A stretch of DNA of 64,000 bases from Streptomyces sp. NBC_00510 (GTDB lineage Bacteria; Actinomycetota; Actinomycetes; Streptomycetales; Streptomycetaceae), in assembly GCA_036013505.1 (NCBI GenBank), contig CP107851.1:930001-994000 (forward strand), given 5' to 3'. A program made the position numbers and the translations under genes. Positions 1-19,040 of this stretch are shown in pieces. The notes below the pieces were generated by a model. That model searched no databases, was not told the DNA's origin, and saw nothing but the letters and a program-made list of their open reading frames with translations. How positions within the stretch are numbered: position 1 is the stretch's first letter; the number at the start of each line of letters is the position of its first letter.

Positions 1-3000
1 AGCCGTCCCACAGGATCAGGTGGCGGCCGATGACGAGGCGGTCGCCCAGCTCCGCGCCGCGGCGTACGAGCAGCATGCGGAACAGTGGCGGCGCGGACAG
101 GTCGAAGCGGCGGGTGCGCTCCTCGTCCATCAGGACGCGCAGCCGCGCCTCCTGCTCGGCGGCGGGCAGCGCCGACAGGTCGACCGTCTCCAGCGGCACT
201 TCGGGCTCGGCGACGATGAACTGCACCGGCTGGCGCAGCCCGTCGCTGGTGAATCCGGCGCGCAGACCGGGGTTGCGGTCGAGCAGGGTGCGGGCGGCGG
301 CGCGCAGCCGGCCCTCGTCCAGGCGCTCGGCGAAGTCGAAGGTCTCGTGGACGGTGTAGACGTCCAGGGCTCCGTCGTCGTAGGCGGAGTGGAAGAACAG
401 GCCTTCCTGGAGCGGGGCGAGCGGCCAGATCTCGGCGACCGCTCCCCCGGCGGTGCGGTGGACGCGCTCGGTCTCCCCGGGGGTCAGCTCGGGGCGGACG
501 GGCCCGGTGCGCTCCGCGGCGGCGGCGGCGGCGCCGGTGCGGGCGGCCAGGGCGAGGGCGGCGGGGGTGCGGTGCTCGAAGACGTCGCGCGGGGTCAGTT
601 CGAGACCGGCGGCGCGGGCGCGGCTGGCGACGCCTATGGAGCTGATGCTGTCGCCGCCGAGGAGGAAGAAGTCGTCGTCGGGGCCGGCGTCCGGCAGGCC
701 GAGGACGGCCGCGAAGACCTCCGTCAGCGTCCGCTCGTGGTCGGTGCGCGGAGCGCGGGCGGGGGCGCGCTCGGCCTCGGGCGCGGGCAGCGCGGCCCGG
801 TCCAGCTTGCCGCTGGGGGTCAGCGGCAGCGCGTCCAGCACGACGAAGGCGTCCGGGACGAGCGGCGCGGGCAGCAGCTCGGCCACGGCGGCGCGCAGGG
901 CGGCGGTGTCCGGGCGGGAGTCGCGCGCCGGGACGACGTACGCCACGAGGCGCTGCTCGCGGACGGTCACCGCGGCCTGGGCGACCTCCGGGAGCCGTAC
1001 GAGGGCGGTCTCGGTCTCGCCGGGCTCGATGCGGTTGCCGCGCAGCTTGACCTGGCGGTCGGTGCGGCCCAGGTACTCCAGGACACCTCCCCCAGCCTCC
1101 GGCCGGGGGGACCCCCAACGCCGGCGCACGAGGTCGCCGGTGCGGTACATCCGCTCGCCGGGGGTGCCGTACGGGTCAGCCACGAAGCGCTCCGCCGTGA
1201 GCGCGGAGCGGCCGTGGTAGCCGCGGGCGAGCTGCACACCGGTCAGGTAGAGCTCGCCGGGCACGCCGTCCGGCACCGGGCGCAGGCAGGCGTCCAGCAC
1301 GCGCAGGCCCGTGTTCCACACCGGGCGGCCGATGGGCACGGTGGTGTCCTGGGCGCCGTCGAAGGCGTGGTGGGTGACGTCGACGGCGGCCTCGGTGGGC
1401 CCGTAGAGGTTGTGCAGCGGCACCCCGGTGAGCGCCTGCCAGCGCGCGGCGGCGGCGCCGGGCAGGGCCTCGCCGCTGCTGAGCACGCGGCGCAGGCTCG
1501 CCGCCCACGACGCTTCGGCGGTCACCTCGGGCGTGCTGAGGAACGCCTCCAGCATGGAGGGCACGAAGTGCAGGGTGGTGACGCGCTGTTCGCGGACGAG
1601 CCCGGCGAGGTAGGCCGGGTCGCGGTGCCCGTCCGGCCGGGCGAGGACGACGGCGGCGCCCTCGCACAGCGGCCAGAAGAACTCCCACACGCTGACGTCG
1701 AAGCTCGACGGGGTCTTCTGCAGGACGCGGTCGTCGGCCGTCAGGCCGTACTCGCCCTGCGTCCACGCGAGGCGGTTGACGACGGCGCGGTGGGTGACGA
1801 CGACGCCCTTGGGGCGGCCGGTGGAGCCGGAGGTGTAGATCAGGTACGCCGGGTCGTCGGGCCGGGCCGCCGCACCCGCAACCTTCCCCTGGACGTCTTC
1901 GGCGGGGGCGTCGACCAGCAACGGCGTCAGCCCCTCCACGGCGGGCAGCCGCGGGGCGTCGGCCGCCGTGGTGACGACGGTGGTGGCGCCCGAGTCGGCG
2001 AGCATGTACGAGACGCGCTCGGCCGGGTAGTCCAGGTCGACGGGCAGGTAGGCCGCGCCGGACTTGAGGACGCCGAGCAGCGCCACCATCAGTTCCGCCG
2101 AGCGCGGGACGGCGACGGCGACGAAGCCCTCGGGTCCGGCGCCGCGGGCGCGCAGCCGCGCGGCCAGCGCCTCGGCGCGCGCGTCGAGTTCGGCGTACGT
2201 CAGGGAGGTGTCGCCGTACACGACGGCGGTCGCACCGGGGGTACGGGCGGTCTGCGCGGCGATGGCGGCGGGCAGCGTCGTTGCCGGGACGTCGCGGACG
2301 GCGCCGTCGAGGTGGGCGGTGGCGTGCTCGTGCGGGGTGAGCAGGTCGACGGAGCCGGCCGGGCGGCCGGGGTCGTCGGCGATGGCCTCCAGCAGCAGCG
2401 TGAGCCGGTCGCCGAGGGCGCGGACGGCCGCGGCGTCGATCCGGCGCGCGTGGTGCTTGAGCCGCAGGTCCATGCGGCGGCCGGGCTTCACGATGAGCGC
2501 GAGCGGATAGTGCACGGTGTCGTGGAAGGCGTGGCCGCTGACGCGCACGGTGCCCGAGGGGTCGGCGAGGCCGGTCTCGGCGGGGTAGTTCTCGAAGACG
2601 ACGAGGGTGTCGAAGAGTTCGCCGCCGCCCGCGTGCCCGGCGGCCCGCTGGATCTCGGCGAGGCCGAGGTGCTGGTGGTCCAGCAGGCCGCTCTGCTCGT
2701 CCTGGAGGCGGCGCAGCAGCGTGCCGAGGCCGGTGGCCGGGTCCCAGGCGAGCCGGGTCGGCAGGGTGTTGATGAACAGGCCGACCATGGAGTCGATGCC
2801 GTCGACGGCGACGTCGCGGCCGGAGACGGTGGTGCCGAAGACGACGTCCTGCTGTCCGGTAAGCCGGCCCAGCAGCAGGCCCCAGGCGCCCTGCACGACG
2901 GTGCCGAGGGTGACGCCGAGCTCGCGGGCACGGGCCGCGAGGCGGGCCGTGACGCGCTCGGAGAGCTCCACGCGTGTCTGCGCGGGCTCGACCGGGCCGC

Positions 3001-6000
3001 CGTCCGCGGGCGCGTCCACCAGGCGCGTCGGGCCTTCGAGTCCGGCGAGCGCGGTACGCCAGGCGGTGCGGGCGACGTCCCGGTCGGCGGCGGCGATGCG
3101 CCGCAGGTAGCCGGCGTACGCGGGCACCGCCGGCAGCGGCGCCGGGTCGTCCGCGTACAGGGCCATCAGCTCGCGGTGGAGGACGGGCAGCGACCAGCCG
3201 TCCGCGACGATGTGGTGGAACGTCAGCAGCAGGCGGCTGCGGTCCGCGCCCAGGCGGACGAGCGCGCAGCGCAGCAGCGGCGGCCGGGCCAGGTCGAAGG
3301 GCCGGGACCGCTCGTCGGCGGCGACGGCGTCCGCGAGGCCGCGGCGCACGCCGTCCTCCTGCGCGGACAGGTCGACCTCGCGCCAGGGCAGCACGGCGCC
3401 ACTGGTGACGACCTGGACGGGCCGGCCGTCGGGGAGCTGGCGGAAGCAGGCGCGCAGCGGGGCGTGCCGCTCCAGGAGCCGTTCCATGGCGCGTCGCAGG
3501 GCGGCGCCGTCGACGGGGCCGGACAGCTCCACGGCCTGCTGCACGACGTAGGCGTCGTGGTCGGCGCCGTCGACGAGGGCGTGGAAGAAGAAGCCCTCCT
3601 GCAGCGGGCCGAGCGGCAGCACCTCGTCGACGGTGACCGGGAGGTCGCCGCGCAGGGCGGCCAGTTCGGAGTCCGTCGGGGACAGCAGGGGCGCGGCCTG
3701 CTCCTCCGCGGTGGCGTCGTCCGGGCCGCCCTCCTGGGCGACCTCGGCGAGCGCGGCGACGGTGCGGTGCCGGAAGACGTCGCGCGGGGTGAGGCGCAGG
3801 CCGGCGCGGCGGGCGAGGACAAGCAGCTGGATCGCCACGATGCTGTCGCCGCCGAGCGCGAAGAAGTCGTCGTCGATCGTGACGGTCCGCACACCGAGGG
3901 CCTGCGCGTACAGGGCGCACAGCAGCTCCTCGCGGGCGTCGCGCGGGGCGCGGCCCGAGCTGAGGGCGGCGTAGTCGGGGACGGGCAGGGCGGCGCCGTC
4001 GAGCTTGCCGCTGGGCGTCACCGGCAGCCGGTCCAGGGGCACGAGGGCCGCGGGGACCATGTACTCCGGCAGGAATTCGGCGGCGTGCGCGCGCAGGGTG
4101 CGCATCAGCGCGGTGACGTCGCGGAAGGGGGCGGGCCGGTTGGCGAGCGGGCGGCCGCCGCCGGGCCGGTACAGCGGGCCCGGGTCGGCGCCCTCGGCGG
4201 TGAAGACGGCGTCGACGCTGCCGTCGTCGGCGTCCCCGGTCCAGGTCAGGGCGGCGGACAGGCCGTGCCGCGCGGCGAGTTCGTGCAGCGCTTCAGGATC
4301 GACGGTGCCGGCGCCGTCAGCGCCGGGGCGGCTGCTGTCGTCGAGGACGGCGAGGGCGTCGAGGTCCTCGGTGAGGCGGGCGTTGGGCACGGCGGTGACG
4401 CGAAGCCGCTCCGGGCGCGCGGCGAGCCGGGCGTCCAGGGCGTCGAGACCGCCGAGGGCGGCCCACGCGATCTCGTCACCCGTGTCCGGCTCCGCCGAAG
4501 TGGGTGCCGGGCGCAGTTCGACGTCGTAGCGGTAGCGGGTCAGCTCGTTGTGGTGGACGCCGCGCTTGACGCGCACCTGGGCGGCGAAGCCGTCGAGGCC
4601 CGCGAACCAGTCCGGGTCGACGAGGAGTTCGCCCTCCCACGCCACCGAGCGGTCGACGGCGGCGCGCAACGCCTCCTTGTCGGCGGCGTCACCGGCGGCG
4701 CCCTCGTCGCCGGCACCGCGGCGGCTCTCCACGGCGGCGCGCAGGGCGCGCAGCAGCCGCAGGTTGCGCACGTCGCCGACGAAGATCGCACCGCCGGGGG
4801 CGAGCAGCGCGGCGGCCTTGCGCAGCACGTCCTGGAGGTAGTCGGCGCCCGGGAAGTACTGGGCGACGGAGTTGACGACGACGACGTCGAAGTGGCCCTC
4901 GGGCAGTCCGGTGGTGTCGTGCGCGGGGCGGGCCGACAGCTCGACGCGCCCGGCGAGTTCCGGTACGTCGCGGATCTGGGCGCGCAGCGCGGCGACGGCC
5001 TCCTCGGAGACGTCGGTGCCCCAGTACGCCTCGCAGCCGGGGGCCAGGCGGGACAGCAGCAGGCCGCTGCCGACGCCGATCTCCAGGACGCGGCGCGGCG
5101 CGAGCGCGGCGATGCGCTCGACGGTGGCCGTCCGCCACTCGCGCATGTCGGCGAGCGGGATGGGCAGCCCGTCGTACATGCTGTTCCAGCCGGCGAAGTT
5201 CTCCTGGAAGCCCTCGGAACCCGCGGCGGAGTACAGGAGTTCGTGCAGGTCCTTCCACTCGGCGACCTCGGCGTCGCCGTCGACCGACGGCACGACGTAG
5301 GCGGCCAGCCGCCGGTCGCCGGGCCGGTCCTCGCGGACGACGACGGCGGCCTGGGCGACGCCGGGGTGGGCGCGCAGCACGGACTCGATCTCGCCGGGCT
5401 CGATGCGGAAGCCGCGGATCTTGACCTGGCTGTCGACGCGGCCGAGGAACTCCATCCGCCCGTCGGACTTCCAGCGCACGAGGTCGCCGGTGCGGTAGAG
5501 CCGCTCCCCCGGCTCGCCGAAGGGGTCGGCGACGAAGCGCTCGGCCGTCAGGTCGGGCCGCCCGAGGTAGCCGCGGGCCAGCCCGGCGCCGCCGAGGTAG
5601 AGCTCTCCCGCGACACCGGCGGGGACCGGCCGCAGCCGGGCGTCGAGGACGTAGGCGCGGGTGCCGGGGTCGGGCACGCCGATGGGCACGATGGTGCCGG
5701 CCGGGGTGTCGGGATCGCACAGGCCGAGGGTGGAGTTGGTGGTCGCCTCGGTCGGGCCGTAGGCGTTGAACATCATGCGGCCGCGCGCGTAGCGGCCGAC
5801 GAGTTCGGGCGAGACGCGCTCGGTGCCGGCGAGCAGCGTCGCCTCCGCGGGCAGGTGCACGTCGTCGGGCATGGCGGCGAGCAGCGCGGGTGGCAGGATC
5901 ATGAAGGTGATGCCGTGGGCGTTCGCGTAGTCGGCGAGCGGCGGGCCGGGGACGCGTCGTTCGGAGGGTACGACGACGAGCCGTCCGCCGGAGAGCAGGC

Positions 6001-7297
6001 CGAGGCACAGGTCCCAGAAGGCGACGTCGAAGCTCGGGGAGGCGAACTGCAGCACCCGGCTGTGCGGGCCGATGCCGAAGCGCTCGCTCTGGGTGGCGAC
6101 GAGCTTGGCGACGCCGGCGTGGGAGAGGACGACGCCCTTGGGCCGGCCGGTGGAGCCGGAGGTGTAGATGACGTAGGCGGCGTTCGCGACCGTCAGCCGG
6201 CCGCCGGACTCGGGGTCGTGGGCCGGCAGCCCGGCGAGCTCGGCGACGGTGTCCGGGGCGTCCAGGAGCAGCGTGGGCACCTCGCCGGGCAGGTCGGCGG
6301 CGACCTCGGCGGTGGTGACGAGGCACACCGGCGTGGCGTCGGCGAGCATGTAGGCGACGCGGTCGGCGGGGTAGTCGGTGTCGACCGGCAGGTAGGCGGC
6401 GCCGGACTTGAGCACCGCGACCTCGGCGACGATCAGCTCGGCCGAGCGCGGCACGGCCAGCGCCACCACCGTCTCGGGCCCGGCGCCCCGGGCGACGAGG
6501 GCGTGGGCCAGCCGGTTGGCGCGGGCGTCGAGTTCGGCGTAGGTGAGGCGGACGTCCTCGAAGACCAGGGCGGTCTCGTCGGGCCGGGTGCGGACCTGCT
6601 CGGCGAACATGGCGGGCCAGGTGGCGAGCGGCACGTCGTGGTCGGTGTCGTTCCACTCGTGGAGGACGCGGTGCCGCTCCGGCCCGTCGAGAGTTGCGAG
6701 GTCGCCGACGGCACGGTCGGGGTGCGCGGTGGCGGCGGCCAGGAGGGTGGCGTAGTGGCCGAGGATCCGGTCGACGGTGGCGGCCTCGAAGAGGCCGGGG
6801 TGGTACGCGGCGTGGACCTCGCCGGACGCCACCCGCAGTTCGAGGTCGAGGGGGCCGCCGGCCCAGTCGCCGGCGGCGAAGCCCGTGTTGCAGAGCAGAC
6901 CGCCGCCGCGGGTCGCAGCGGCGCCCAAGGCGGCGGCGAGGACGGTGGCCGGGGCGCGGTGGGCGCGGGCCCGCTCCGCGACGGCCGCCACCTGCGCGGT
7001 GAGCCCGGCGAAGGTGGTGTCAGCGCTGAGGGCGACGCGCAGCGGCAGGCCGTCGTGGGCGAGGACGAGGTCGGTGGCCCCGCCGCCGTAGTGGTGGAGC
7101 AGGGCGACGTACGCCGCGAGGTGCCGTTCCTGACCCGCGGCCGTGCCGGGCAGGGCACGGAAGCGGACCGCGGCCGGTCCCGCGGGACGCTGCGGATAGG
7201 GGAAGTCGACGGGGAGAACGGTCTCCTGTGCGAGCGGAATCAGCCGCTCACGCCAGAAGTCCTTTGCCGCCATCGCCAGTTCTTCGTTACCCGACAC
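1..7297 (-). CDS. Siderophore nonribosomal peptide synthetase, 3' end outside window
   Basis: Cytoplasmic multimodular NRPS, about 2,430 residues visible. Order, numbered from ATG 7273: half condensation-like domain (1-200, begins [10 protein letters not shown]); A1 (about 215-1090) with [12 protein letters not shown] and a methyltransferase inserted after A8 (SAM motif LEIGVGSG near 735); PCP1 (LGGDSI near 1150); C (1215-1625, HHIVADGWS); A2 (about 1690-2160); PCP2 (LGGDSISS near 2207); start of another C domain cut by the window edge. My reading of the ten-residue code is DVWHLSLVDK for A2, the serine type, and DVWILGATNK for A1, which I cannot assign firmly but which fits a modified ornithine given the neighbouring monooxygenase and formyltransferase. 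Start: GTG 7297 has GGAAGG 11 nt upstream; ATG 7273 is the alternative. An iron box lies just upstream. No epimerase domain is visible. Confidence 0.93.
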
Positions 7298-7360
7298 CGG
7301 TGCCCGTGCCTTCCCTTATGTGCGGAATCGACTCGACCGAGCCGTGACCGCTCGCCATAT

Positions 7361-7379
7361 TAAGGTAAGCATTACCTAA
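7361..7379. promoter_or_regulatory. Iron box (IdeR/DmdR-type), NRPS promoter
   Basis: TAAGGTAAGCATTACCTAA is a near-perfect palindrome matching the actinobacterial iron-box pattern (TTAGGTTAGGCTnACCTAA). It lies about 65 bp upstream of the leftward NRPS start, so iron-loaded DtxR-family repressor would shut the gene off. Confidence 0.8.
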
Positions 7380-7431
7380 CTTGATAGACCTCCCCATCGG
7401 GGCATGACCGCACAGCTCACAGCGGTAGGGT

Positions 7432-7450
7432 TAAGGTGTGCCTAACCTAA
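7432..7450. promoter_or_regulatory. Iron box, permease operon promoter
   Basis: TAAGGTGTGCCTAACCTAA matches the same iron-box pattern. It ends 25 bp before the GTG start at 7476 and is 71 bp from the NRPS box, so the divergent region carries one box for each direction. Confidence 0.8.
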
Positions 7451-7475
7451 GCATGCTGGCCGTGGAGCCAGGCCG

Positions 7476-8501
7476 GTGACCGCGCGCGGAAACCTGCGCC
7501 CAGCCCTGCTCGTCGTGTTGCCGGTCGTCGCCCTGGCCGGACTGTGCGTGCTGTCGATCGGGCTGGGTGCCGTCGACATCCCCCCGGACCAGGTCGTCCG
7601 GGCGCTTTTCGGCCACCCCTCGAGCCATCTCGTGGACAACATCGTCTGGACCGTCCGGGTACCGCGCACCGTCCTCGGCCTCACCGCGGGCGCCGCCTTG
7701 GGGCTGTCCGGCGCGCTCATGCAGGCCCTGACCCGCAACCCGCTCGCCGACCCCGGCATCCTGGGCGTCAGCGCGGGCGCGTCCTTCGGGATCGTCGTCG
7801 CCATCGCCCTGTTCGGGCTCGGCTCGCTGTACGGCACGATCTGGTTCGCCTTCGCCGGCGCGCTCGGCACCAGCGTGGTGGTCTTCCTGCTCGGCCGGAC
7901 GGGCCGTTCGGGCGCGACGCCGGTGAAGCTGGCGCTGGCCGGAGTCGCCGTCACCTTCCTGCTGTTCTCGCTGACCAACGCGATCGTCCTCACCGATCCC
8001 GACGCCCTGGACCGCTACCGCTTCTGGTCCGCGGGCACCCTCGCCGACCAGGACGGCACCGTCGTCCGCAGCATCCTGCCGTTCCTGGCGGTCGGGGCGG
8101 TGCTCGCGCTCGCCGCCGCCCCCGCGCTCAACAGCCTGGCCCTGGGCGACGACGTGGCCGCCTCCCTGGGACGCCGGCTCGGCCTCGTACGCCTGCAGGG
8201 GGTCGTCGCGGTGATGCTTCTCACGGGCGCGTCGGTCGCCGTGATCGGCCCGGTGGTCTTCCTCGGCCTGGTGGTTCCGCACGTCGCCCGGGTGCTGACC
8301 CAGTACGCGGGCATCGGCCCCGACCACCGCTGGCTGCTGCCGCTTTCGGCGGTGCTCGCCCCGTGCCTGCTGCTCACCGCGGACATCCTCGGCCGGGTCG
8401 TCGCACGGCCCACCGAGGTCCAGGCCGGAGTGCTCGTCGCCTTCATCGGCGGCCCGTTCTTCGTCGCCCTGGTCCGCCGGCGCAAACTCGCGGAGGTCTG
8501 A
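7476..8501 (+). CDS. FecCD-family ferric-siderophore ABC permease, subunit 1
   Basis: 341-residue polytopic inner-membrane permease that forms half of a ferric-siderophore import channel. It shows the family hallmark RNPLADPGILGVSAG near residue 88, the LGDDVAASLG segment of the cytoplasmic ATPase-coupling helix, and the C-terminal GGPFFVALVRRRK end. The GTG start has GGAG 8 nt upstream and sits directly after an iron box. The stop is followed 2 nt later by the second permease. The order permease-permease-ATPase next to a hydroxamate NRPS resembles the cchCDE part of coelichelin clusters, but no binding-protein gene accompanies this set in the window. Confidence 0.93.
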   Translation: MTARGNLRPALLVVLPVVALAGLCVLSIGLGAVDIPPDQVVRALFGHPSSHLVDNIVWTVRVPRTVLGLTAGAALGLSGALMQALTRNPLADPGILGVSAGASFGIVVAIALFGLGSLYGTIWFAFAGALGTSVVVFLLGRTGRSGATPVKLALAGVAVTFLLFSLTNAIVLTDPDALDRYRFWSAGTLADQDGTVVRSILPFLAVGAVLALAAAPALNSLALGDDVAASLGRRLGLVRLQGVVAVMLLTGASVAVIGPVVFLGLVVPHVARVLTQYAGIGPDHRWLLPLSAVLAPCLLLTADILGRVVARPTEVQAGVLVAFIGGPFFVALVRRRKLAEV

Positions 8502-8503
8502 GC

Positions 8504-9565
8504 ATGACCGCCCTCGCCCCCCTCCGCGGCCGCCGGCCCTTCCGGCTGGCGGCCCCACCGGTCTCCGGAGTGCTCCGGCCGCGGCTGGTCGCCGTGTGCG
8601 CCGCCCTGGTCGTCGCGGTGTTCCTGCTCTTCTGCTGGGGCGTGACCCTCGGCGACTACCCCATCGGGTTCTCCGACGTGGTCAAGGCCCTCACCGGCGC
8701 CGGCGACCCCGGAACGGTGCTGGTCGTACGGGAGTTGCGGCTGCCGCGTGCGCTCGCGGGACTGCTCGTCGGCATCGCCTTCGGCATCTCCGGCGCGCTG
8801 TACCAGACCATGACCCGCAACCCGCTGGCCAGCCCCGACATGATCGGGCTGACCGAGGGCGCGGGGACCGCCGTGGTCGCGGGCATCGTGCTCGGCTGGG
8901 ACGGCGGGCTGGGCACCCAGGGCCTCGGCCTGCTGGGGGCGCTGGTCACGGCGCTCCTGGTGTACGCGCTGGCGTGGAAGGGCGGCGCCACCGGCTACCG
9001 CATCATCCTGGTCGGCATCGGCGTGTCCTGGATGTGCACCAGTGCCACGGACTACCTGGTCGCGCACGGCGAGCGGTTCGAGGCGCAGGCCGCCCTCGGC
9101 TGGCTGGTGGGCAACCTCAACGGCCGCACCTGGGACCAGGTCACGCAGCTCGCGGTCGCCATGGCCGTGCTCGTGCCGCTCGCCCTCGGCATGGGCCGCC
9201 GGCTGCGGACCCTGCAGCTCGGCGACGACGTGGCGGCCGGCCTCGGCACGCCGGTGCAACCGGTGCGGCTGGCCCTGCTGCTCATCGGCGTCGGGCTGAT
9301 CGCCTTCGGCACGGCCGCGGCCGGACCGGTCGCCTTCGTGGCGCTGGCCGCCCCGCAGATCGCCCAGCGGATGGCCGGCACGGCGTGGCCGCCGCTGGCC
9401 GCCTCGGGACTGACCGGCGCGCTGGTCGTCCTGGGATCCGACCTCATCGCGCGTGAAGCGATCCCCGGCACGGAACTCCCGGTCGGGATCGTCACCGGCG
9501 TCATCGGCGCGCCGGTCCTGCTCTGGCTGCTCATCCGCGCCAACCGCGCGGGCTCAGGAGGCTGA
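8504..9565 (+). CDS. FecCD-family ferric-siderophore ABC permease, subunit 2
   Basis: 353 residues with about ten membrane segments. The FecCD motif RNPLASPDMIGLTEGAG is near residue 104 and the coupling-helix sequence LGDDVAAGLG near residue 240. The ATG lies 2 nt after the upstream stop, so the two permeases are translationally coupled and probably form a heterodimer. It ends ELPVGIVTGVIGAPVLLWLL, the usual family C-terminus. The ATPase gene follows 4 nt downstream. Family and operon position are clear; which siderophore it carries is inferred from the neighbouring NRPS. Confidence 0.93.
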   Translation: MTALAPLRGRRPFRLAAPPVSGVLRPRLVAVCAALVVAVFLLFCWGVTLGDYPIGFSDVVKALTGAGDPGTVLVVRELRLPRALAGLLVGIAFGISGALYQTMTRNPLASPDMIGLTEGAGTAVVAGIVLGWDGGLGTQGLGLLGALVTALLVYALAWKGGATGYRIILVGIGVSWMCTSATDYLVAHGERFEAQAALGWLVGNLNGRTWDQVTQLAVAMAVLVPLALGMGRRLRTLQLGDDVAAGLGTPVQPVRLALLLIGVGLIAFGTAAAGPVAFVALAAPQIAQRMAGTAWPPLAASGLTGALVVLGSDLIAREAIPGTELPVGIVTGVIGAPVLLWLLIRANRAGSGG

Positions 9566-9569
9566 ACCC

Positions 9570-10415
9570 ATGGCGACCACCGACCCCGCCCCCACCGCCG
9601 CCGCCGGCCCCGACCTGCGGGCGCGCGGGCTGCACCTGGCGTACGACGACCGGCTGGTGGTCGAGGACCTCGACCTCGTCATACCCTCCGGCCGCATCAC
9701 CGCCATCGTCGGCGCCAACGCCTGCGGCAAGTCCACCCTCCTGCGCGCGCTGGCCCGGCTGCTCGCGCCCCGTCAGGGCGTCGTCGAACTCGACGGCCGC
9801 GCCCTGCGGTCGGTGCCGACCAGGGAACTCGCCCAGCGGCTGGGCATCCTGCCGCAGACCCCGGTGGCCCCGGAGGGGCTGACCGTCATCGACCTGGTCA
9901 GCCGCGGCCGTTCGCCGCACCAGACGTGGTGGCGGCAGTGGTCCAAGGCCGACGAGCTGGCGGTCCACGAGGCGCTGGCGGCGACCGACCTGACCGAGCT
10001 CGCGGACCGGGCCGTGGACGAGCTGTCCGGCGGCCAGCGCCAGCGGGCCTGGATCGCCATGGCCGTCGCCCAGGGCACCCCCGTCCTCCTGCTGGACGAG
10101 CCGACCACCTACCTGGACCTGGCCCACCAGATCGACGTCCTGGACCTCGTCACCGACCTCAACCGCCGCGAGCACCGCACGGTGGTGATGGTCCTGCACG
10201 ACCTCAACCAGGCCTGCCGCTACGCCGACCACGTCATCGCCATGAAGTCGGGCCGGATCGCCGCCGAGGGCACGCCGGCCGAGGTGATCACCGCCGAGAC
10301 CGTCGAGGACGTCTTCGACCTGCGCTGCCAGGTCACCACCGACCCGGTGAGCGGCACCCCTCTGGTGATCCCCATGGGCCGCCACCACGAGGCGGTCCCC
10401 GTCGCCGCCGAGTGA
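9570..10415 (+). CDS. Ferric-siderophore ABC transporter ATP-binding protein
   Basis: 281-residue ATPase of the FecE/FepC type, driving the two preceding permeases. Walker A is GANACGKST (residue 48), signature LSGGQRQRAW (151), Walker B VLLLDEPTTYLD (172) and the H-loop LHDLNQACRYADH. AGGAG lies 9 nt upstream of the ATG, inside the end of the preceding permease gene. It is the last gene of the iron-box-driven operon in this direction. The complete motif set argues for an active enzyme. Confidence 0.93.
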   Translation: MATTDPAPTAAAGPDLRARGLHLAYDDRLVVEDLDLVIPSGRITAIVGANACGKSTLLRALARLLAPRQGVVELDGRALRSVPTRELAQRLGILPQTPVAPEGLTVIDLVSRGRSPHQTWWRQWSKADELAVHEALAATDLTELADRAVDELSGGQRQRAWIAMAVAQGTPVLLLDEPTTYLDLAHQIDVLDLVTDLNRREHRTVVMVLHDLNQACRYADHVIAMKSGRIAAEGTPAEVITAETVEDVFDLRCQVTTDPVSGTPLVIPMGRHHEAVPVAAE

Positions 10416-10542
10416 CGCGGCGCGCGGCCCGACCGGTGGCGGGCCGGAGGCGATCCGGGAGCCGGACACCGTCGACCTGCGGCGCGTACGGCGGCGGCCT
10501 ACGGTGTTGGTACGGGGTCCGCACGGCTGATCGGAGCCGGCC

Positions 10543-10941
10543 ATGCCTGTCTACCATGTGGTCACCACGCAGAACACGGTCTCGGCGCAGCAGAAGGCCG
10601 AGTTGGCGGCGGAGATCACGCGTCTCCACGCGTCGATCACCGGGGCGCCCACCTCCTTCGTGCACGTGACGTTCGCCGAACTGCCGGAAGGCAGCGTCTT
10701 CACGGATGCGGCTCCCTCACATCCCCTGCTGATCGAGGCGACCACACGGGCGGGCCACGCGGACACGGAGAAGACACAGCTTGCCAAGGACATCTCGGCC
10801 GCCGGCAGCAGGGTGACCGGCGTGCCGGAGTCGCACATCCTCGTCATCATCAAGGACAGCCCGGCTCGGTTCGCCGCCGAGGGAGGCCGCATCCTGCCCG
10901 AGCCGGGAGACGAAGACGACTGGCCGGCAGGAACCGACTGA
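10543..10941 (+). CDS. Tautomerase (4-OT/cis-CaaD-like) family protein
   Basis: 132 residues beginning MPVYHVVTTQNTVS. The proline after the initiator Met is the catalytic base of the tautomerase superfamily, and the length matches the double-length cis-CaaD-like branch rather than the 60-residue 4-oxalocrotonate tautomerases. The second half (HADTEKTQLAKDI, VPESHILVIIKD) is the typical second beta-alpha-beta unit. It lies between the ATPase and the acetylglutamate-kinase paralogue, 127 nt from the former, with no iron box of its own. Substrate unknown; it may be a passenger rather than a siderophore gene. Confidence 0.72.
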   Translation: MPVYHVVTTQNTVSAQQKAELAAEITRLHASITGAPTSFVHVTFAELPEGSVFTDAAPSHPLLIEATTRAGHADTEKTQLAKDISAAGSRVTGVPESHILVIIKDSPARFAAEGGRILPEPGDEDDWPAGTD

Positions 10942-11017
10942 CCGGACGCCGGCTTCGGCCGCCGGGGCGGACAGGCGCGGGCGACCGCGGCCCGGCCACC
11001 CCGGCGCACCTCACGGC

Positions 11018-11878
11018 CTAGCCCGGCAGGACGGTCGTGCCGGCGCCGCCCGGCCCGACGGACAGCGCGCGCAGCAGGGCGTGCGGGGCGCGGCCGTCCA
11101 GCACGCGGGCCGTGCGGACGCCCGCCCGGACGGCCCGCAGGCAGCTCTCCATCTTGGGCACCATGCCGCCGCCCAGCGCCGGGAGCATCGCCTCCAGTTC
11201 GGCGGCGGTGAGCCGGTCCAGGACCCGTTCGCGGCGCGGCCAGTCGGCGTACAGCCCGGGCACGTCGGTGAGGACGACCAGCGCCTCGGCGTCGAGCGCG
11301 GCGGCCAGGGCCCCGGCCGCCGCGTCCGCGTTGACGTTGTAGATCTGGCCGTCCGTGCCCCGGCCGAGCGAGGAGACGACGGGGATGTGGCCGTGGTCCA
11401 GGAGCACGTCCACGGCCGCCGTGTTGACCTCCGTCACCTCGCCGACGAGGCCGATGTCGACGATCTCGCCGTCGACGTCGGCGTAGCGGCGCACCGCGGT
11501 CAGCGTGTGCGCGTCCTCGCCGGTGAGCCCCACGGCATACGGGCCGTGCTCGTTGAGGAGCCCCACCAGGTCCCGCTGGACCTTGCCGGCCAGCACCATC
11601 CGCGCGACGTCCAGGACCTCGGGGGTGGTGACCCGCAGCCCGCCGACGAAGCGGGCCTCGATGCCGATCAGGTCGAGCTGGGCGCTGATCTGCGGGCCGC
11701 CGCCGTGCACCACCACGACCCGCACCCCGGCCTCCCGGATGCGGACGACGTCCTGCGCGAAGGTGCGCAGCAGGGAGGCGTCGCCCATGGCGTTGCCGCC
11801 CACCTTCACGACGACGGTGCGGCCCCCGAGCGCGCGCAGGGCGGGAAGCGGCCCGGGGCCGGCCAGGGCCGTCGTCAC
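11018..11878 (-). CDS. argB: Acetylglutamate kinase paralogue in siderophore locus
   Basis: 286-residue amino-acid-kinase-fold protein. It shows the KVGGNAM phosphate loop near residue 26, the [11 protein letters not shown] substrate loop, the [15 protein letters not shown] segment and the [11 protein letters not shown]-terminal motif, all typical of N-acetylglutamate kinase, the committed step to ornithine. GTG 11878 overlaps the stop of the upstream formyltransferase in a GTGA arrangement, so the two are translationally coupled and under the same iron box. The context suggests a dedicated isozyme raising ornithine supply for hydroxamate synthesis when iron is low. That role is inference; kinase family membership is clear. 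Confidence 0.88.
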
Positions 11879-12822
11879 GGACGCGTGGTCAGGTAGCCGC
11901 CCATGGTGCGGAACCAGTCGCCGGCCGCGTACTCGGTGCCGTCGTCCGTGCGGACCGTGCGCACCAGCAGTCCCTTGCGGTGGCCGCCGCGGGCGTCCGC
12001 GCCGGCGACGATGACGACGCCGTCGCCCTCGCGGATGAAGATGCGGCCGGCCGTGCCGCCGTAGCGGGCCTGCGAGACGGCGGCGGAGACGATCCTGATG
12101 CGTTCGCCGCGGTGGTAGGTGAAGGCGTTGGGGTACGGGTCGGACTGCGCCCGCACCAGGCGTTCCAGGTCCTCGGCGGGCCAGTTCCAGTCGATGCGGC
12201 TGTCCTCGACGGAGCGCTTGTGGAAGAAGCTGGCGCGGGCGCGGTCCTGGGGCGTCCACTCGGCGCGGCCGGAGGCGATCAGGTCCAGGGACTCGCGCAC
12301 GAGGGGTGCGATCAGGTCGCAGGTGCGGTGGAAGAGGTCGGTCGCGGTGTCGTCCGGGCCGACGGGCTCCGAGCGCTGCAGCAGGATGTCGCCGGCGTCC
12401 AGTTCGCCGTCCATGCGGTGGGCGGTGACGCCGACGCGCTCCTCGCCGTTGATCAGCGCCCAGATGATCGGGGAGAAGCCCGCGTAGGCGGGGAGCAGGG
12501 AGTCGTGCACGTTGAGGGTGCCGTGCGGCGGGAGGTCGAAGATCTCCGGTGGCAGCCAGGTGCGCCAGTTGTTGGCGACGATGATGTCGGGTGCCGCGGC
12601 GCGGATGGCCTCCAGCAGTTCGGCGTCGTCGGGGCGGTTGCGCAGCAGCACGGGCACGCCGTGCTTCTCGGCGAGTTCCGCCACCGAATCGTCCCAGATC
12701 TTCTCGTACGCGTGCTCGCTCCTGGGGTGGGTCACGACGAGGACGACCTCGTGATCCGACTCCAGCAGGGCCTGCAGCGTCCGGTGTCCCCAGGTCTGAT
12801 AACCGAACATGACGACCCGCAT
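11875..12822 (-). CDS. N5-hydroxyornithine formyltransferase (CchA-like)
   Basis: 315 residues. The formyltransferase fold is identified by the N-H-S-L-L-P motif ([15 protein letters not shown] near residue 104), [13 protein letters not shown] with the catalytic Asp, and a C-terminal barrel ([14 protein letters not shown] onward). It is expected to move the formyl group of N10-formyltetrahydrofolate onto the N5-hydroxyl amine of ornithine, giving the formyl-hydroxamate iron ligand, as CchA does in coelichelin synthesis. It is divergent from the monooxygenase with an iron box between them, and overlaps the downstream kinase gene by 4 nt. Confidence 0.92.
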
Positions 12823-12850
12823 GGGCGGCCTCTCCTTCAGTGATTATTGC

Positions 12851-12867
12851 AAGGTTAGGCTTACCTT
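12851..12867. promoter_or_regulatory. Iron box between formyltransferase and monooxygenase
   Basis: AAGGTTAGGCTTACCTT is palindromic except at its centre. It lies in the 82-bp divergent gap, 28 bp from the formyltransferase start and 37 bp from the monooxygenase start, so one site can control both hydroxamate-tailoring genes. Confidence 0.8.
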
Positions 12868-12904
12868 ATCTAGTATGTGGCGCGCATAGGGAGGCGATGC
12901 AACG

Positions 12905-14257
12905 GTGACAGCACCGCTCAATGAGCCGGACACGATCCACGACATCCTGGGAATCGGTTTCGGTCCGTCAAATCTGGCTCTGGCGATAGCCCTCGAGGAG
13001 CACAACGCACAAGTCCCCGCCTCCCGGCGGATCAACGCCCGCTTCCTGGAGCGGCAGCCCCGTTTCGGGTGGCACCGCGGCATGCTGATCGACGACGCGA
13101 CGATGCAGGTCTCGTTCCTGAAGGACCTGGTCACCATGCGCAACCCGACCAGCGACTTCAGCTTCCTGTGCTACCTGCGCGAACAGGGCCGGCTGGTCGA
13201 CTTCCTCAACCAGAAGACGCTCTTCCCGCTCCGCGTGGAGTTCCACGACTACTTCGAGTGGGCCGCCGCCCGCGTCGCCCACGTCGTCGACTACTCCTGC
13301 GAAGTGCTGTCGGTCACACCGGTCCGCGACGCCGACGGCGAGGTCGACCACCTCGACGTGACGTGCCGGGACCCCGAGGACCCCGCGCGGACGGTCACCC
13401 ACCGGGCCCGCAACATCAGCGTGGCCGTCGGGCTCGAGCCGCACCTGCCGCCGGGCACCGAGCTGTCGGACCGCGTGTGGCACAACAGCCAACTGCTGCC
13501 CAGGGTCGCCGAGCTCACCGCGACGGGCACCCCGGTGCGCCGGGCCGTCGTCCTCGGCGCCGGGCAGAGCGCGGCCGAGGCGGTCGACTTCCTGCACCGC
13601 ACCTTCCCCGACGCGGAGATCTGCGCGGTGTTCGCCAAGTACGGCTACACGCCCGCCGACGACAGCCCCTTCGCCAACCGGATCTTCGACCCTGAGGCGG
13701 TGGACCTCTACTTCGGCTCCCCGTCCGAGGTGAAGCAGTCCCTCGTCGACTACCACCGCAGCACCAACTACTCGGTGGTCGACATGGACCTCATCGAGGC
13801 CCTGTACGCGACCTCCTACCGCGAGAAGGTGCAGGGCCGCGAACGGCTGCGCTTCCTCAACGTCTCCCGCATCCGCGACGTGAGCGCCGCGGACGACGGC
13901 CTCGACGTGACGGTGGAGTTCCTGCCGACCGGCGAGCGGCACGTCCTGGAGGCGGACGTCCTCGTGCACGCCACCGGGTACCGCTCGCAGGACGTCGGCA
14001 CGCTCCTCGGGGAGTCCGCCAAGATCTGCCTGCGCGACGACGGCGACGCGCTGCGCGTCGGCCGCGACCACCGCGTCGAGGTCGCCCCCGAGGTGCGGGC
14101 GGGCATCTACGTGCAGGGCGGCACCGAGCACACGCACGGGCTGACCTCCACCCTGCTGTCCACCACCGCGATCCGGGCCGGCGAGATCGTCGCCTCGCTC
14201 GTCGCCCGTCAGGACGAGCCGGCCGCGACGGCCGCGACGGCCGCGGCCCGCGCCTGA
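12905..14257 (+). CDS. L-ornithine N5-monooxygenase (CchB-like)
   Basis: 450-residue flavoprotein hydroxylase of the SidA/PvdA/CchB family, which turns L-ornithine, NADPH and O2 into N5-hydroxyornithine. The N-terminal FAD motif is GIGFGPSNLALAI (residue 17). The substrate region QVSFLKDLVTMRNPTSDFSF follows, the NADPH motif GAGQSAAE is near residue 219, and the ATGYRSQDV family motif lies towards the C-terminus. The GTG start at 12905 follows an iron box. A long perfect hairpin starts at the base after the stop. With the adjacent formyltransferase it supplies formyl-hydroxyornithine to the NRPS. Confidence 0.95.
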   Translation: MTAPLNEPDTIHDILGIGFGPSNLALAIALEEHNAQVPASRRINARFLERQPRFGWHRGMLIDDATMQVSFLKDLVTMRNPTSDFSFLCYLREQGRLVDFLNQKTLFPLRVEFHDYFEWAAARVAHVVDYSCEVLSVTPVRDADGEVDHLDVTCRDPEDPARTVTHRARNISVAVGLEPHLPPGTELSDRVWHNSQLLPRVAELTATGTPVRRAVVLGAGQSAAEAVDFLHRTFPDAEICAVFAKYGYTPADDSPFANRIFDPEAVDLYFGSPSEVKQSLVDYHRSTNYSVVDMDLIEALYATSYREKVQGRERLRFLNVSRIRDVSAADDGLDVTVEFLPTGERHVLEADVLVHATGYRSQDVGTLLGESAKICLRDDGDALRVGRDHRVEVAPEVRAGIYVQGGTEHTHGLTSTLLSTTAIRAGEIVASLVARQDEPAATAATAAARA

Positions 14258-14303
14258 GACGCCTCTGGGGGCCGCCGGACGACCGGCGGCCCCCAGAGGC
14301 GTC
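14258..14303. terminator. Perfect 21-bp hairpin terminator
   Basis: Arms 14258-14278 and 14283-14303 are exact reverse complements around the loop ACGA. It starts right after the monooxygenase stop and also faces the leftward pseudogene, so it may work in both directions. There is no U-tract, as is usual in Streptomyces. Confidence 0.85.
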
Positions 14304-14330
14304 CACCGAAGCCGCGGGCCCGGGTACTGC

Positions 14331-15082: not shown

Positions 15083-15096
15083 GAACCGCCCCGGCG

Positions 15097-17163
15097 CTAG
15101 CGCCGGGTGCGCAGCAGCAGGTGCAGGAAGTACGGCGTGCCGATGACGGCCGTCATCAGGCCCGCGCCGAGTTGGGCCGGGGCGATCACCGTCCGCCCGA
15201 GGAGGTCCGCGGCGCAGACGAGCGAGGCGCCCAGGAGCACCGCGACCGGTACGACCCGTACGTGCCGGCGGCCCACCAGGGCCCGGGCGGCGTGCGGGGC
15301 GACCAGCCCGACGAAGCCGATGGTGCCGGCGGCGGCCACGGCGGTCGCGGTGAGCAGCACGCTCGTCACGAGGAACCCGAGCCGGACCGGGCCGCGGCGC
15401 AGCCCCAGCAGGGCCGGGGTGTCCTCGTCGACCGACAGCAGGTCGAGTTCGGTGCGCCGCGCCACCGCGACCGCCAGACCCAGCACGAGGGCCGCCGCCA
15501 CGGGCAGCGTGTCGGGCACGGTCCGCCCGTAGGTGGAGCCGGACAACCAGGTGAGCGCCTTCGTCGCGTTGAAGGGGTCGGTGAGCACGATCAGCAGGCT
15601 GATCAGGGCCGTCGCGGCCGCGGACACGCCGACGCCGACGAGGACCAGCCGGGTCTGCTGGAAGCCGCCCCGCGCCGCGAGCCCGAACACGAGGACCGCG
15701 CTCACCGCGGCCCCGGCGAACGCGGCTCCCGCCACGCTCCAGGCCCCGGCGACCGGGACCGTCGTGACGAACAGCACCGCGCCGAGCGCGGCGCCGCCCG
15801 AGACGCCGAGGATGCCGGGCTCCGCCAGCGGGTTGCGGGTGACGGCCTGCACCAGCGTGCCGGACAGGGCGAGCGCCGCCCCCGCCAGGAGTGCGGCGAG
15901 CACCCGCGGGACACGGGTGTCCAGGACGAAGGAGACCGCCTGACCGGCCCTGCCCTGCGCCCAGTTCGCCACATCGCCCAGGAGCAGCTTGGTGTCGCCC
16001 AGCAGCACTCCGGCGACGGCCACCCCCACGAGGAGGGCGACGAGGAGGGCCAGGGTCACCAGGAACGTCGCACGGCCGGGGATGCGCATCCGGTCCGGCG
16101 CGCCCACCCCTGCCGAGTCCCGGGCCCGCAGCGCCATGACGACCAGGAACACCGCGCCGACCAGGCTCGTGACGACGCCGGTGGGCACCGCCACGGCGGT
16201 CTGCGCCGGCACCACCGCGCGCAGCAGGACGTCCGCGCCGAGCACCAGGCCCGCGCCGACCAGGCCCATGACGGGCAGGCCGAGGCGCGTACGCACCAAC
16301 GGCCGGTGACGCCGGGCCAGCGGCCGTACGAGGGCCGGCGCGCACAGGCCGACGAAGCCGATGGGCCCGGCGAGGGTCACCGCCGCGGCGGACAGCAGCG
16401 ACGCGCACACCACGACGGTGATCCGCGTGCCGCGGACGGGGACGCCGAGGCCGCGGGCGGCGTCGTCGCCGAGCGCGAGGGCGTCGACGCGCCGGGCCAC
16501 CAGCAGCAGTCCGGCGACACCGGCCACGGCGACCGGGGCCATCTGCACCACGCCGTCGAAGCCGTTCTGGCTGATGCTGCCCTGGCTCCACTGGTAGAGG
16601 CCGTTGGTCTGCTGCGGGAAGAGCAGGATCAGCCCCTCGGTGACGGAGGTCAGGCCGAGGGTGAGCGCGCTGCCGGCCAGGACGAGGCGCACGGTCCCGG
16701 TGCCCAGCCCCGACAGCGACAGGACGACGGCGGCGGCCGCGAGCCCGCCGGCGAAGGCCACACCGGAGGAGGCCAGCAGCGGCAGGGACGTCCCGGTGAC
16801 CATGAGGACGCCGAGGGCCAGGTACGAACCGGCGTTCACGGCGAGGGTGTCGGGCGCGGCGAGCACGTTGCGGCTGACGGACTGGAGGGCCGCGCCGGCG
16901 GTCCCGAGGGCGGCGCCGACCAGCAGGCCGGCGGTCATGCGGGGCAGGCGCGAGGCGATCACGACGGACGCGTCGCCGGGACCGGCCCCGCCCGTCAGTG
17001 CCTTCCAGACCTCGGCAGGGCCGACGGCCGCGGTGCCCTGGGTGATGTCGACGACCGCGAGGACGGCGACCAGGAGCACGAGCGCGGCCGTCACCGCGGC
17101 CGCTCCCGTCCGGGAGCCGACCGCGTGCGGACGGGTGGCGGGGGTCGTTGCGGTGACGGCCAC
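15097..17163 (-). CDS. Fused double FecCD ferric-siderophore permease (FhuB-like)
   Basis: 688 residues, about twice the normal permease length. The first half has RNVLAAPDTLAVNAG near residue 100 and LGDDAARGLGVPV. A linker (MRIPGRATF) leads to a second half with RNPLAEPGILGVSGG near residue 441 and ends APAQLGAGLMTAVIGTPYFLHLLLRTRR. The two homologous halves give a single-chain channel as in FhuB. The GTG start lies 6 nt after the stop of the binding lipoprotein, so this is the third gene of the ATPase, lipoprotein, permease operon controlled by the iron box at 19022. Confidence 0.93.
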   Translation of the reverse strand: MAVTATTPATRPHAVGSRTGAAAVTAALVLLVAVLAVVDITQGTAAVGPAEVWKALTGGAGPGDASVVIASRLPRMTAGLLVGAALGTAGAALQSVSRNVLAAPDTLAVNAGSYLALGVLMVTGTSLPLLASSGVAFAGGLAAAAVVLSLSGLGTGTVRLVLAGSALTLGLTSVTEGLILLFPQQTNGLYQWSQGSISQNGFDGVVQMAPVAVAGVAGLLLVARRVDALALGDDAARGLGVPVRGTRITVVVCASLLSAAAVTLAGPIGFVGLCAPALVRPLARRHRPLVRTRLGLPVMGLVGAGLVLGADVLLRAVVPAQTAVAVPTGVVTSLVGAVFLVVMALRARDSAGVGAPDRMRIPGRATFLVTLALLVALLVGVAVAGVLLGDTKLLLGDVANWAQGRAGQAVSFVLDTRVPRVLAALLAGAALALSGTLVQAVTRNPLAEPGILGVSGGAALGAVLFVTTVPVAGAWSVAGAAFAGAAVSAVLVFGLAARGGFQQTRLVLVGVGVSAAATALISLLIVLTDPFNATKALTWLSGSTYGRTVPDTLPVAAALVLGLAVAVARRTELDLLSVDEDTPALLGLRRGPVRLGFLVTSVLLTATAVAAAGTIGFVGLVAPHAARALVGRRHVRVVPVAVLLGASLVCAADLLGRTVIAPAQLGAGLMTAVIGTPYFLHLLLRTRR

Positions 17164-19016: not shown

Positions 19017-19021
19017 GAACG

Positions 19022-19040
19022 AAGGTTAGCCTAACCTAAT
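19022..19040. promoter_or_regulatory. Iron box, second uptake operon
   Basis: AAGGTTAGCCTAACCTAAT contains the perfect palindrome AGGTTAGCCTAACCT. It starts 6 bp upstream of the leftward ATPase start, so bound repressor would cover the start region. Confidence 0.82.

What the first reader, a model, noticed from the sequence alone, without database searches (positions are those of the whole stretch)
1..14303. N-methylated, serine-containing formyl-hydroxamate siderophore cluster
The first module's A domain contains an inserted methyltransferase and the second carries the serine code DVWHLSLVDK (my reading). Ornithine N5-hydroxylation and formylation genes are alongside. Coelichelin synthetase has no methyltransferase and uses Thr in module 2, so this is not the coelichelin system. 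It is closer in logic to scabichelin/albachelin-like peptides, but could be a new variant.
Basis: partly seen in the sequence, partly recalled or inferred. Interest (0 to 1): 0.7.

Follow-up and report, generated by a model that had tools for sequence, protein, structure and literature searches.

The report
Six-module scabichelin-type siderophore assembly line
This actinomycete carries one giant six-module enzyme, a relative of the one that makes the iron-scavenger scabichelin with one extra serine module, that is predicted to build a six-residue iron-binding peptide; the layout is common and already in print, but one of its joining domains carries an odd active-site motif that likely marks where an unusual iron-binding bond is formed.

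Summary
The window shows 2432 residues of a 7309-residue NRPS (genome 915368-937297, minus strand) beside ornithine hydroxylase, formyltransferase, MbtH and iron-siderophore transport genes. The whole synthetase has six modules: A1[MT], A2 (Ser), A3[MT] (hydroxyornithine), A4 (ornithine-type), A5 (Ser), A6 (hydroxyornithine), then a terminal epimerase; no thioesterase. It groups with scabichelin (five modules in S. scabiei), differing by one block, A5-T5-C6, and is not coelichelin. The same layout was published for Herbidospora in 2015 ("albachelin-like"), and the 120 best-listed database proteins are of its size: a new member of a known kind. Predicted product: NMe-fhOrn-Ser-NMe-hOrn-Orn-Ser-cyclo-hOrn (M 734.392), untested.

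Two extras. (1) The condensation domain before NMe-hOrn has a lengthened motif (RHxxxWDG). In 338 homologues, 205 of 207 internal hydroxyornithine modules follow a lengthened or degenerate motif; 63 of 65 that follow the ordinary motif are last in the protein. I infer that it marks acylation of the side-chain N-OH. (2) A cluster-borne acetylglutamate kinase lacks the arginine-feedback helix of its housekeeping paralogue, so it likely escapes feedback. Iron boxes lie before the NRPS and a second transporter set.

The parts
1..7297 (-). N-terminal part (2432 whole codons) of the 7309-residue six-module NRPS (complete gene genome C1:915368-937297; continues left of the window in L009)
5342..6544 (-). 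A1 adenylation core (residues 252-652), code DVWIL(A/G)ATNK; predicted fhOrn loading, by identity with the scabichelin synthetase
4763..5125 (-). methyltransferase inserted in A1 (residues 725-845)
2324..3625 (-). C2 condensation domain (residues 1225-1658), motif HHIVADGW; the carrier before it has LGGDS
806..2257 (-). A2 adenylation domain with AMP-binding_C (residues 1681-2164), serine code DVWHLSLVDK
1..526 (-). start of the C3 condensation domain (about residue 2258 on); its lengthened active-site motif RHLILWDGW begins at residue 2425 (window 25) and runs across the window's left edge
7432..7450 (-). iron box (IdeR/DmdR-like palindrome, 3 mismatches to a recalled consensus) between the NRPS and permease starts; a second, weaker palindrome by eye at 7360-7379
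7476..8501 (+). FecCD-type siderophore permease 1 (family named by eye; no Pfam call made)
   Evidence: homologue in 78 of 80 named loci, 71-96%
8504..9565 (+). FecCD-type siderophore permease 2 (start and family by eye)
9570..10415 (+). FecE-type ATPase (start and family by eye)
   Evidence: homologue in 77 of 80 named loci
10543..10941 (+). tautomerase-family protein, role unknown; no homologue at E 1e-8 in the fetched part of 80 named loci
11018..11878 (-). acetylglutamate kinase (AA_kinase); its GTG start overlaps the formyltransferase stop; predicted arginine-insensitive
11875..12822 (-). N5-hydroxyornithine formyltransferase (predicted)
   Evidence: homologue in 72 of 80 named loci
12850..12868 (+). 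iron-box-like palindrome (4 mismatches, counted by eye) between the formyltransferase and hydroxylase starts
12905..14257 (+). ornithine N5-monooxygenase (predicted)
   Evidence: homologue in 72 of 80 named loci
15097..17163 (-). fused double FecCD-type permease (family by eye), second transporter set
17170..18147 (-). iron-siderophore binding lipoprotein (by eye) of the second set
18144..19016 (-). FecE-type ATPase (by eye) of the second set
19021..19039 (-). iron box (2 mismatches to a recalled consensus) just upstream of the second transporter set
   Evidence: 0 matches expected in 100 shuffles

Best explanation
A single 7309-residue, six-module NRPS with two built-in methyltransferases, encoded beside predicted ornithine hydroxylase and formyltransferase genes and downstream of an iron-box-like site, is predicted to make a six-residue tris-hydroxamate siderophore, likely NMe-fhOrn-Ser-NMe-hOrn-Orn-Ser-cyclo-hOrn (scabichelin plus one serine). 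Shown by sequence: module order, two A-MT didomains, serine-type codes at 2 and 5, hydroxyornithine-type codes at 3 and 6, terminal E, no thioesterase hit, tailoring, MbtH and transport genes, iron-box matches. Inferred: ornithine is N5-hydroxylated and, for residue 1, formylated; residues 1 and 3 are N-alpha-methylated; because residue 3's alpha-amine is methylated, Ser2 would be joined to its side-chain N-OH by the unusual C3 domain, giving the middle hydroxamate; the last hydroxyornithine would cyclise to release the chain; LGGDS carriers followed by PLxPLQ-type C domains at modules 1, 2 and 5, and the terminal E, would make residues 1, 2, 5 and 6 D. A cluster acetylglutamate kinase without the feedback helix would keep ornithine supplied; the FecCD/FecE-type systems would bring the ferric complex back. 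Residue 4 is the least certain (code DAWDTGLVDK; diaminobutyrate possible).
For: Full ORF and six A domains. A-domain identity to the S. scabiei synthetase 87, 81, 87, 66 and 68% for own A1, A2, A3, A4 and A6; the A6 code equals that of scabichelin's last module, stated to load hOrn (PMC7692728, passages). The residues NMe-fhOrn+Ser+NMe-hOrn+Orn+cyclo-hOrn sum to 647.3602, equal to the scabichelin mass 647.36 printed in PMC7692728, which fits Orn at position 4 of scabichelin; own A4 falls in the same clade as the S. scabiei A4 (support 100, 11 rows). Pfam hits for hydroxylase, formyltransferase and MbtH; formyltransferase and hydroxylase homologues lie beside the NRPS in 72 of 80 named loci each, MbtH in 20 of 20 completed loci. 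Iron-box matches, 0 expected by chance.
Against: No chemistry for this strain. The A4 code is a rare form (5 of 113 six-module homologues) and only 66% identical to the S. scabiei A4. PMC8914351 (passages) reports that S. scabiei makes turgichelin as well as scabichelin from the same cluster, so position-4 loading may be relaxed and the code a weak guide. No thioesterase, so release is assumed. D/L assignments rest on motifs. A1 is assigned by homology only. In three named loci with full flanks (L015, L048, L062) formyltransferase and hydroxylase are not beside the NRPS. Colinearity can fail: coelichelin is a tetrapeptide from three modules (PMC9854754, passages).
Confidence: 0.73

Rival explanations
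1. The product is an already isolated hexapeptide siderophore (for instance one of the tsukubachelins), so nothing about the compound is new.
For: Tsukubachelin is named as an NRPS-dependent siderophore, with papers on Streptomyces strains (PMC6011815, passages); I recall, without a call, that these are N-methylated hydroxyornithine hexapeptides. Six-module relatives with Ser codes at 4 and 5 are common.
Against: The held library gave no tsukubachelin structure or cluster (listing, passages); residue 4 here is not of the Ser type.
Confidence: 0.35
2. Residue 4 is not ornithine but diaminobutyrate, hydroxyornithine or a mixture.
For: Own A4 code (DAWDTGLVDK) differs from the S. scabiei DGWDAGLVDK at two of nine read positions; identity only 66%; two products are reported from the S. 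scabiei cluster (PMC8914351).
Against: Same supported clade as the S. scabiei A4.
Confidence: 0.27
3. Module 5 is skipped and the line makes scabichelin itself.
For: The five-module and six-module enzymes differ by the block A5-T5-C6.
Against: A5 keeps a serine code in 113 of 113 homologues parsed as six-module.
Confidence: 0.06
4. It is a coelichelin cluster.
For: Shares the kind of tailoring (hydroxylase, formylating enzyme) and iron control described for cch (PMC9854754).
Against: Six modules, two MT, Ser instead of Thr, no internal E domains (coelichelin layout from PMC5932044).
Confidence: 0.01

Closest known systems
Herbidospora nrps-1 ('albachelin-like siderophore', PMC4599437 Table 2; passages read)
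   Same: Domain order A/MT/T-C/Aser/T-C/Aorn/MT/T-C/A/T-C/Aser/T-C/A/T/E is identical to the one parsed here.
   Different: The A4 code is DGWDSGLVDK in the six Herbidospora loci where it could be read, here DAWDTGLVDK; the product is unknown there too.
Scabichelin synthetase, S. scabiei 87.22 (SCAB_85471; compared as L045+L093)
   Same: Modules 1-4 and the last module, codes 1-3 and last, hydroxylase, formyltransferase, FecCD/FecCD/FecE order.
   Different: Five modules, 6376 residues; lacks the block A5-T5-C6; A4 code DGWDAGLVDK; no acetylglutamate kinase in the fetched flank.
S. turgidiscabies Car8 synthetase (L026+L094); turgichelin is named in PMC8914351 (passages)
   Same: As S. scabiei.
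   Different: Five modules, serine code at position 4; the link of this locus to turgichelin is recalled, and PMC8914351 reports turgichelin from S. scabiei too.
Albachelin NRPS (Amycolatopsis alba; layout quoted in PMC4599437, composition in PMC6151521; sequence not compared)
   Same: Six modules, MT in module 3, Ser at 2 and 5, terminal E.
   Different: Full C and no MT in module 1, E in module 2, Ser at 4.
Phytohabitans nrps-3 (PMC7692728, passages)
   Same: Scabichelin-like, two MT, fifth-module code DAWEGGLVDK or DAWEVGLVDK, terminal E.
   Different: Five modules, four in P. rumicis.
Coelichelin CchH (layout from PMC5932044, passages)
   Same: Ornithine-derived hydroxamate peptide, iron-regulated.
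   Different: Three modules, Thr, internal E domains, no MT.

Membership tests
scabichelin synthetase (five-module) | A1 with inserted MT and the code DVWIL(A/G)ATNK | tested here: met
scabichelin synthetase (five-module) | Ser code in module 2, hOrn code plus MT in module 3 | tested here: met
scabichelin synthetase (five-module) | last module DAWEGGLVDK-T-E, no thioesterase | tested here: met
scabichelin synthetase (five-module) | five modules | tested here: not met
   six A domains and six carriers; hence filed beside scabichelin, not as it
scabichelin synthetase (five-module) | product of mass 647.36 | not testable with these tools
   needs culture and MS
Herbidospora nrps-1 type (six-module, 'albachelin-like') | domain order A/MT/T-C/Aser/T-C/Aorn/MT/T-C/A/T-C/Aser/T-C/A/T/E | tested here: met
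   own parse against PMC4599437
albachelin synthetase | no MT in module 1, E in module 2, Ser at 4 | tested here: not met
   own parse against the layout quoted in PMC4599437
coelichelin synthetase | three modules A/T/E-C/A(thr)/T/E-C/A/T | tested here: not met
   against PMC5932044
arginine-inhibitable acetylglutamate kinase | N-terminal helical extension | tested here: not met
   the motif of the helix is absent in 12 of 12 cluster copies and present in 18 of 18 readable other copies; models H12-16 against H11-24; defining feature from PMC3329491 (abstract and passages). Against: by alignment the window's copy starts only about two residues short of T. maritima NAGK
arginine-inhibitable acetylglutamate kinase | inhibition by arginine | not testable with these tools
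   enzyme assay needed

The most novel reading that the evidence does not exclude
C3 belongs to a distinct class of condensation domain that forms hydroxamate bonds: it acylates the side-chain N-OH of hydroxyornithine, not the alpha-amine, and its signature is an active-site motif lengthened by one residue, mostly tryptophan ([R/H/N]HxxxWDG), which lets one read from sequence alone where a siderophore's internal hydroxamate lies.
Probability: 0.5. Interest if true: 0.6.

Novelty: new member of a known kind. Interest (0 to 1): 0.42.

Why it matters
The comparison shows how this siderophore family varies: the codes of modules 1, 3 and the last are nearly frozen, while position 4 switches between ornithine-type and serine-type A domains and one serine module is present or absent. 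If the lengthened C-domain motif does mark acylation of the side-chain N-OH, the position of internal hydroxamates could be predicted for many uncharacterised siderophore clusters. The kinase would be a simple example of a cluster that frees its precursor supply from arginine feedback.

Tried and rejected
Rejected: coelichelin (module count, MT, Ser); albachelin proper (layout differs); the large plus-strand ORF over the NRPS. The idea that five-module enzymes derive from a six-module ancestor was tested and left open: C5 of the nine five-module enzymes falls inside the six-module C5 rows (only 2% of 200 bootstrap trees hold the latter together), but an AU test does not reject holding them together (p 0.148), and five-module enzymes are reported outside Streptomyces (PMC7692728). 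PMC7601586 (passages) counts five C-A-T units in the Streptacidiphilus jeojiense enzyme, where I parse six A domains (L091) and no MT in module 3; the count may differ because module 1 has no full C.

Lengthened motif: the sign test on a tree of 125 hydroxyornithine A domains (24 independent pairs: 22 with position, 0 against, 2 undecided, p 4.8e-7) overstates independence, because A domains within one synthetase look homogenised while C domains may be inherited with their position. I count it as a strong association, not proof. Coelichelin's own third C domain, a good test, was not reached: a 3667-residue candidate (L177) had other codes. The search for code strings in papers asked for at least two of five terms and found none. 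Paper searches on the C-domain idea listed two and three papers, one in both; I read passages of PMC12026967 and PMC10212144, the rest as listings only, and saw no such claim. Searches for an acetylglutamate kinase in siderophore clusters were read as listings, with passages of one paper (PMC9866976), which places such a kinase in an antibiotic cluster. The library lacks most subscription journals; the scabichelin paper is not held, and the albachelin and tsukubachelin papers were not in the listing.
Full report
WHAT IS THERE. The window is bases 930001-994000 of a single 10.1-Mb contig. The NRPS at its left edge is on the minus strand; with stretches taken from the left the complete gene is 915368-937297, 7309 residues, GTG start. 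Pfam finds two AMP-binding, two Condensation, two carrier and one methyltransferase region in the window's part, and four AMP-binding, five Condensation-type, four carriers and one methyltransferase region in the rest; the last Condensation-type region is taken as the epimerase from its place after the last carrier and its HHLVVDGV motif. The motif scan gives six A domains and six carriers. No thioesterase family was listed for either part at E 1e-3. MbtH follows the NRPS (L009 5165-5371; PF03621).

CODES. Aligned codes are A1 DVWIL(A/G)ATNK, A2 DVWHLSLVDK (Ser), A3 DM(E/W)NLGLINK, A4 DAWDTGLVDK, A5 DVWHISLVDK (Ser), A6 DAWEGGLVDK (letters marked or at the third position depend on the alignment). 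That DVWH..LVDK means Ser and DMENLGLINK hydroxyornithine is recalled; it agrees with the published labels Aser and Aorn for the same modules of Herbidospora (PMC4599437, passages). DAWEGGLVDK is given for the scabichelin hOrn module in PMC7692728 (passages).

RELATIVES. One scan of named genomes returned 95 relatives, of which the best 80 loci were kept: nearest Actinacidiphila glaucinigra (93% in the best segment), with S. scabiei 87.22 (68%) and S. turgidiscabies (71%) among them. I completed 20 of these 80 synthetases: 9 have five modules, 10 have six, and one (L016) could not be parsed past module 4 and was left out of the domain trees. In them codes 1, 3 and the last are the same, code 2 is serine-type, and position 4 is ornithine-type or serine-type. 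In the 80 loci as fetched, position 4 could be read in 52: 20 ornithine-type (12 DGWDAG, 7 DGWDSG, 1 DAWDTG) and 32 serine-type; 28 end before it or were not parsed there. In 394 genomes of the same family, a terminal E-domain query (cut-off 1e-120) splits in two: 16 genomes at 69% identity or more (one of them a partial match), with open frames of 7295-7545 apart from 6780 and 2397 in one each; and 12 at 61-65% with frames of 6238-6627; the remaining matches are at 51-57%. Of 797 scored database proteins the best 120 listed are 6765-7921 residues long; 113 of them parse as six A domains (5 as five, 2 as four), with A3 and A6 codes invariant in 113 of 113, position 4 serine-type in 62 and ornithine-type in 49 with two not listed; five share the window's DAxDTG form. 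So the six-module form is common.

SCABICHELIN LINK. The residues NMe-fhOrn, Ser, NMe-hOrn, Orn and cyclised hOrn add up to 647.3602, the scabichelin mass in PMC7692728. The scabichelin paper is not held, so its structure is taken from this sum, the paper's title (tris-hydroxamate) and recall. Against a strict reading of position 4, PMC8914351 (passages) assigns both scabichelin and turgichelin to the one S. scabiei cluster. The window's A4 lies in the clade of the S. scabiei A4. Trees of C and A domains show that the five-module enzyme corresponds to the six-module one without A5-T5-C6; the direction is unsettled. Serine-type A4 domains group with A5, in two synthetases (L040, L091) as nearest neighbours, as expected if A5 was copied onto A4.

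PREDICTED PRODUCT. NMe-fhOrn-Ser-NMe-hOrn-Orn-Ser-cyclo-hOrn, C29H54N10O12, M 734.3923; [M+H]+ 735.3995; Fe(III) complex 788.3110. N-methylation, formylation, cyclisation and stereochemistry are inferred. PMC6024995 (two of three parts read) says that scabichelin and turgichelin, unlike albisporachelin, are not all-L, although the S. scabiei synthetase shows only a terminal E in my parse; hence C domains after LGGDS carriers likely epimerise.

IRON CONTROL AND SUPPLY. Two iron-box matches lie at 7432-7450 and 19021-19039, with none expected in 100 shuffles of the window; L009 has none. Formyltransferase and hydroxylase homologues were found in 72 of 80 named loci each; five or so of the misses are short loci, but L015, L048 and L062 have full flanks without them. 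The acetylglutamate kinase is present in 11 of the 80 (some loci are cut short). The window's genome has further copies at 3361168 (83%) and 7510415 (64%), and a weak fourth match (28%). All 12 cluster copies and both second copies (window genome and A. glaucinigra) lack the motif RKHxALPKA...ALPWL that 18 of 18 readable other copies have (one, L134, was not read; one hit had no locus), and where the C-terminal end is printed the loop EIFTxxGIGT of the other copies is changed in them. AlphaFold models show helix 11-24 in the housekeeping copy and only 12-16 in the cluster copy, whose residues 1-9 have pLDDT under 50. PMC3329491 (abstract and passages) states that an N-terminal extension is found in all arginine-inhibitable kinases and that arginine binds between it, helix H and the loop after it (described there for the yeast enzyme). 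Against: the extension of the window's copy is nearly as long as that of T. maritima, so what is lost is the helix-forming sequence, not all residues. Cluster-borne kinases are known from the lunaemycin and stenothricin clusters (PMC9866976, passages).

THE ODD C DOMAIN. C3 reads RHLILWDGW where C domains read HHxxxDG. All 20 aligned family members (L016 left out) and 120 of 120 listed proteins have RH(L)xxWDGW. Ten less related C domains (54-64%; L162-L171) have the same length, nine as HHxxxWDG and one as VHxxxWDG; in the three synthetases read further the codes are DVWI(I/V)GAVNK, then Ser or another, DMENLGLINK, DVFILGAVNK, which by recall resemble erythrochelin/foroxymithine lines. All 25 (L147-L171) precede DMENLGLINK; of five ordinary relatives (L172-L176) two, L172 and L175, also do, and I did not check whether those modules are last in their proteins. 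In 338 proteins (three searches, best 120 each, 22 repeated) I found 285 hydroxyornithine-coded modules. Internal: 192 after the extra-W motif, 13 after another lengthened or degenerate motif, 2 after the ordinary one (P0124, P0167). Last in the protein: 63 after the ordinary motif, 13 after extra-W, 2 degenerate. Of the 63, 33 end with a thioesterase-sized tail, 21 just after the carrier, 8 with an E/C-sized tail, 1 lacks a carrier. Of the 13, seven are labelled partial and one (P0244) is on a 22-kb contig; five (P0240, P0248, P0262, P0265, P0309) lie on longer contigs, three of them ending without a carrier, and are unexplained. An earlier count with a narrower search window gave 203 extra-W and 51 ordinary. 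One extra-W motif precedes an incompletely read code (P0301) and none another code. In P0278 both kinds occur in one protein, extra-W before the internal and ordinary before the last hydroxyornithine. Since an N-methylated alpha-amine leaves the side-chain N-OH as acceptor, and a last hydroxyornithine can use its own N-OH to cyclise, I infer that the lengthened motif marks N-OH acylation; the limits of the test are in Tried and rejected.

VERDICT.

Noticed in passing
window 14209-15090 (-): A maleylpyruvate-isomerase-like gene (family by eye) beside the hydroxylase is interrupted by an in-frame stop near 14693; both halves are otherwise open.
   Followed up: partly
genome C1:3361168-3362019 (L113, L116): A second acetylglutamate kinase, 83% identical to the cluster copy and also without the N-terminal helix motif, sits apart from any siderophore gene seen, among housekeeping-type genes (thyX- and dap-like by eye).
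   Followed up: partly
window 10543-10941 (+): A tautomerase-family gene inside the siderophore cluster with no homologue at E 1e-8 in the fetched part of 80 named loci.
   Followed up: no
C domains upstream of hydroxyornithine modules in P0256, P0257, P0261, P0270, P0275-P0277, P0295, P0306: These C domains lack the active-site histidine (TSELILLDGW, TSQVALLDGW and the like) yet keep the lengthened spacing.
   Followed up: partly
L091 and L040 synthetases: A4 and A5 serine-type domains are nearest neighbours within the same protein, as if A5 had been copied onto A4.
   Followed up: partly
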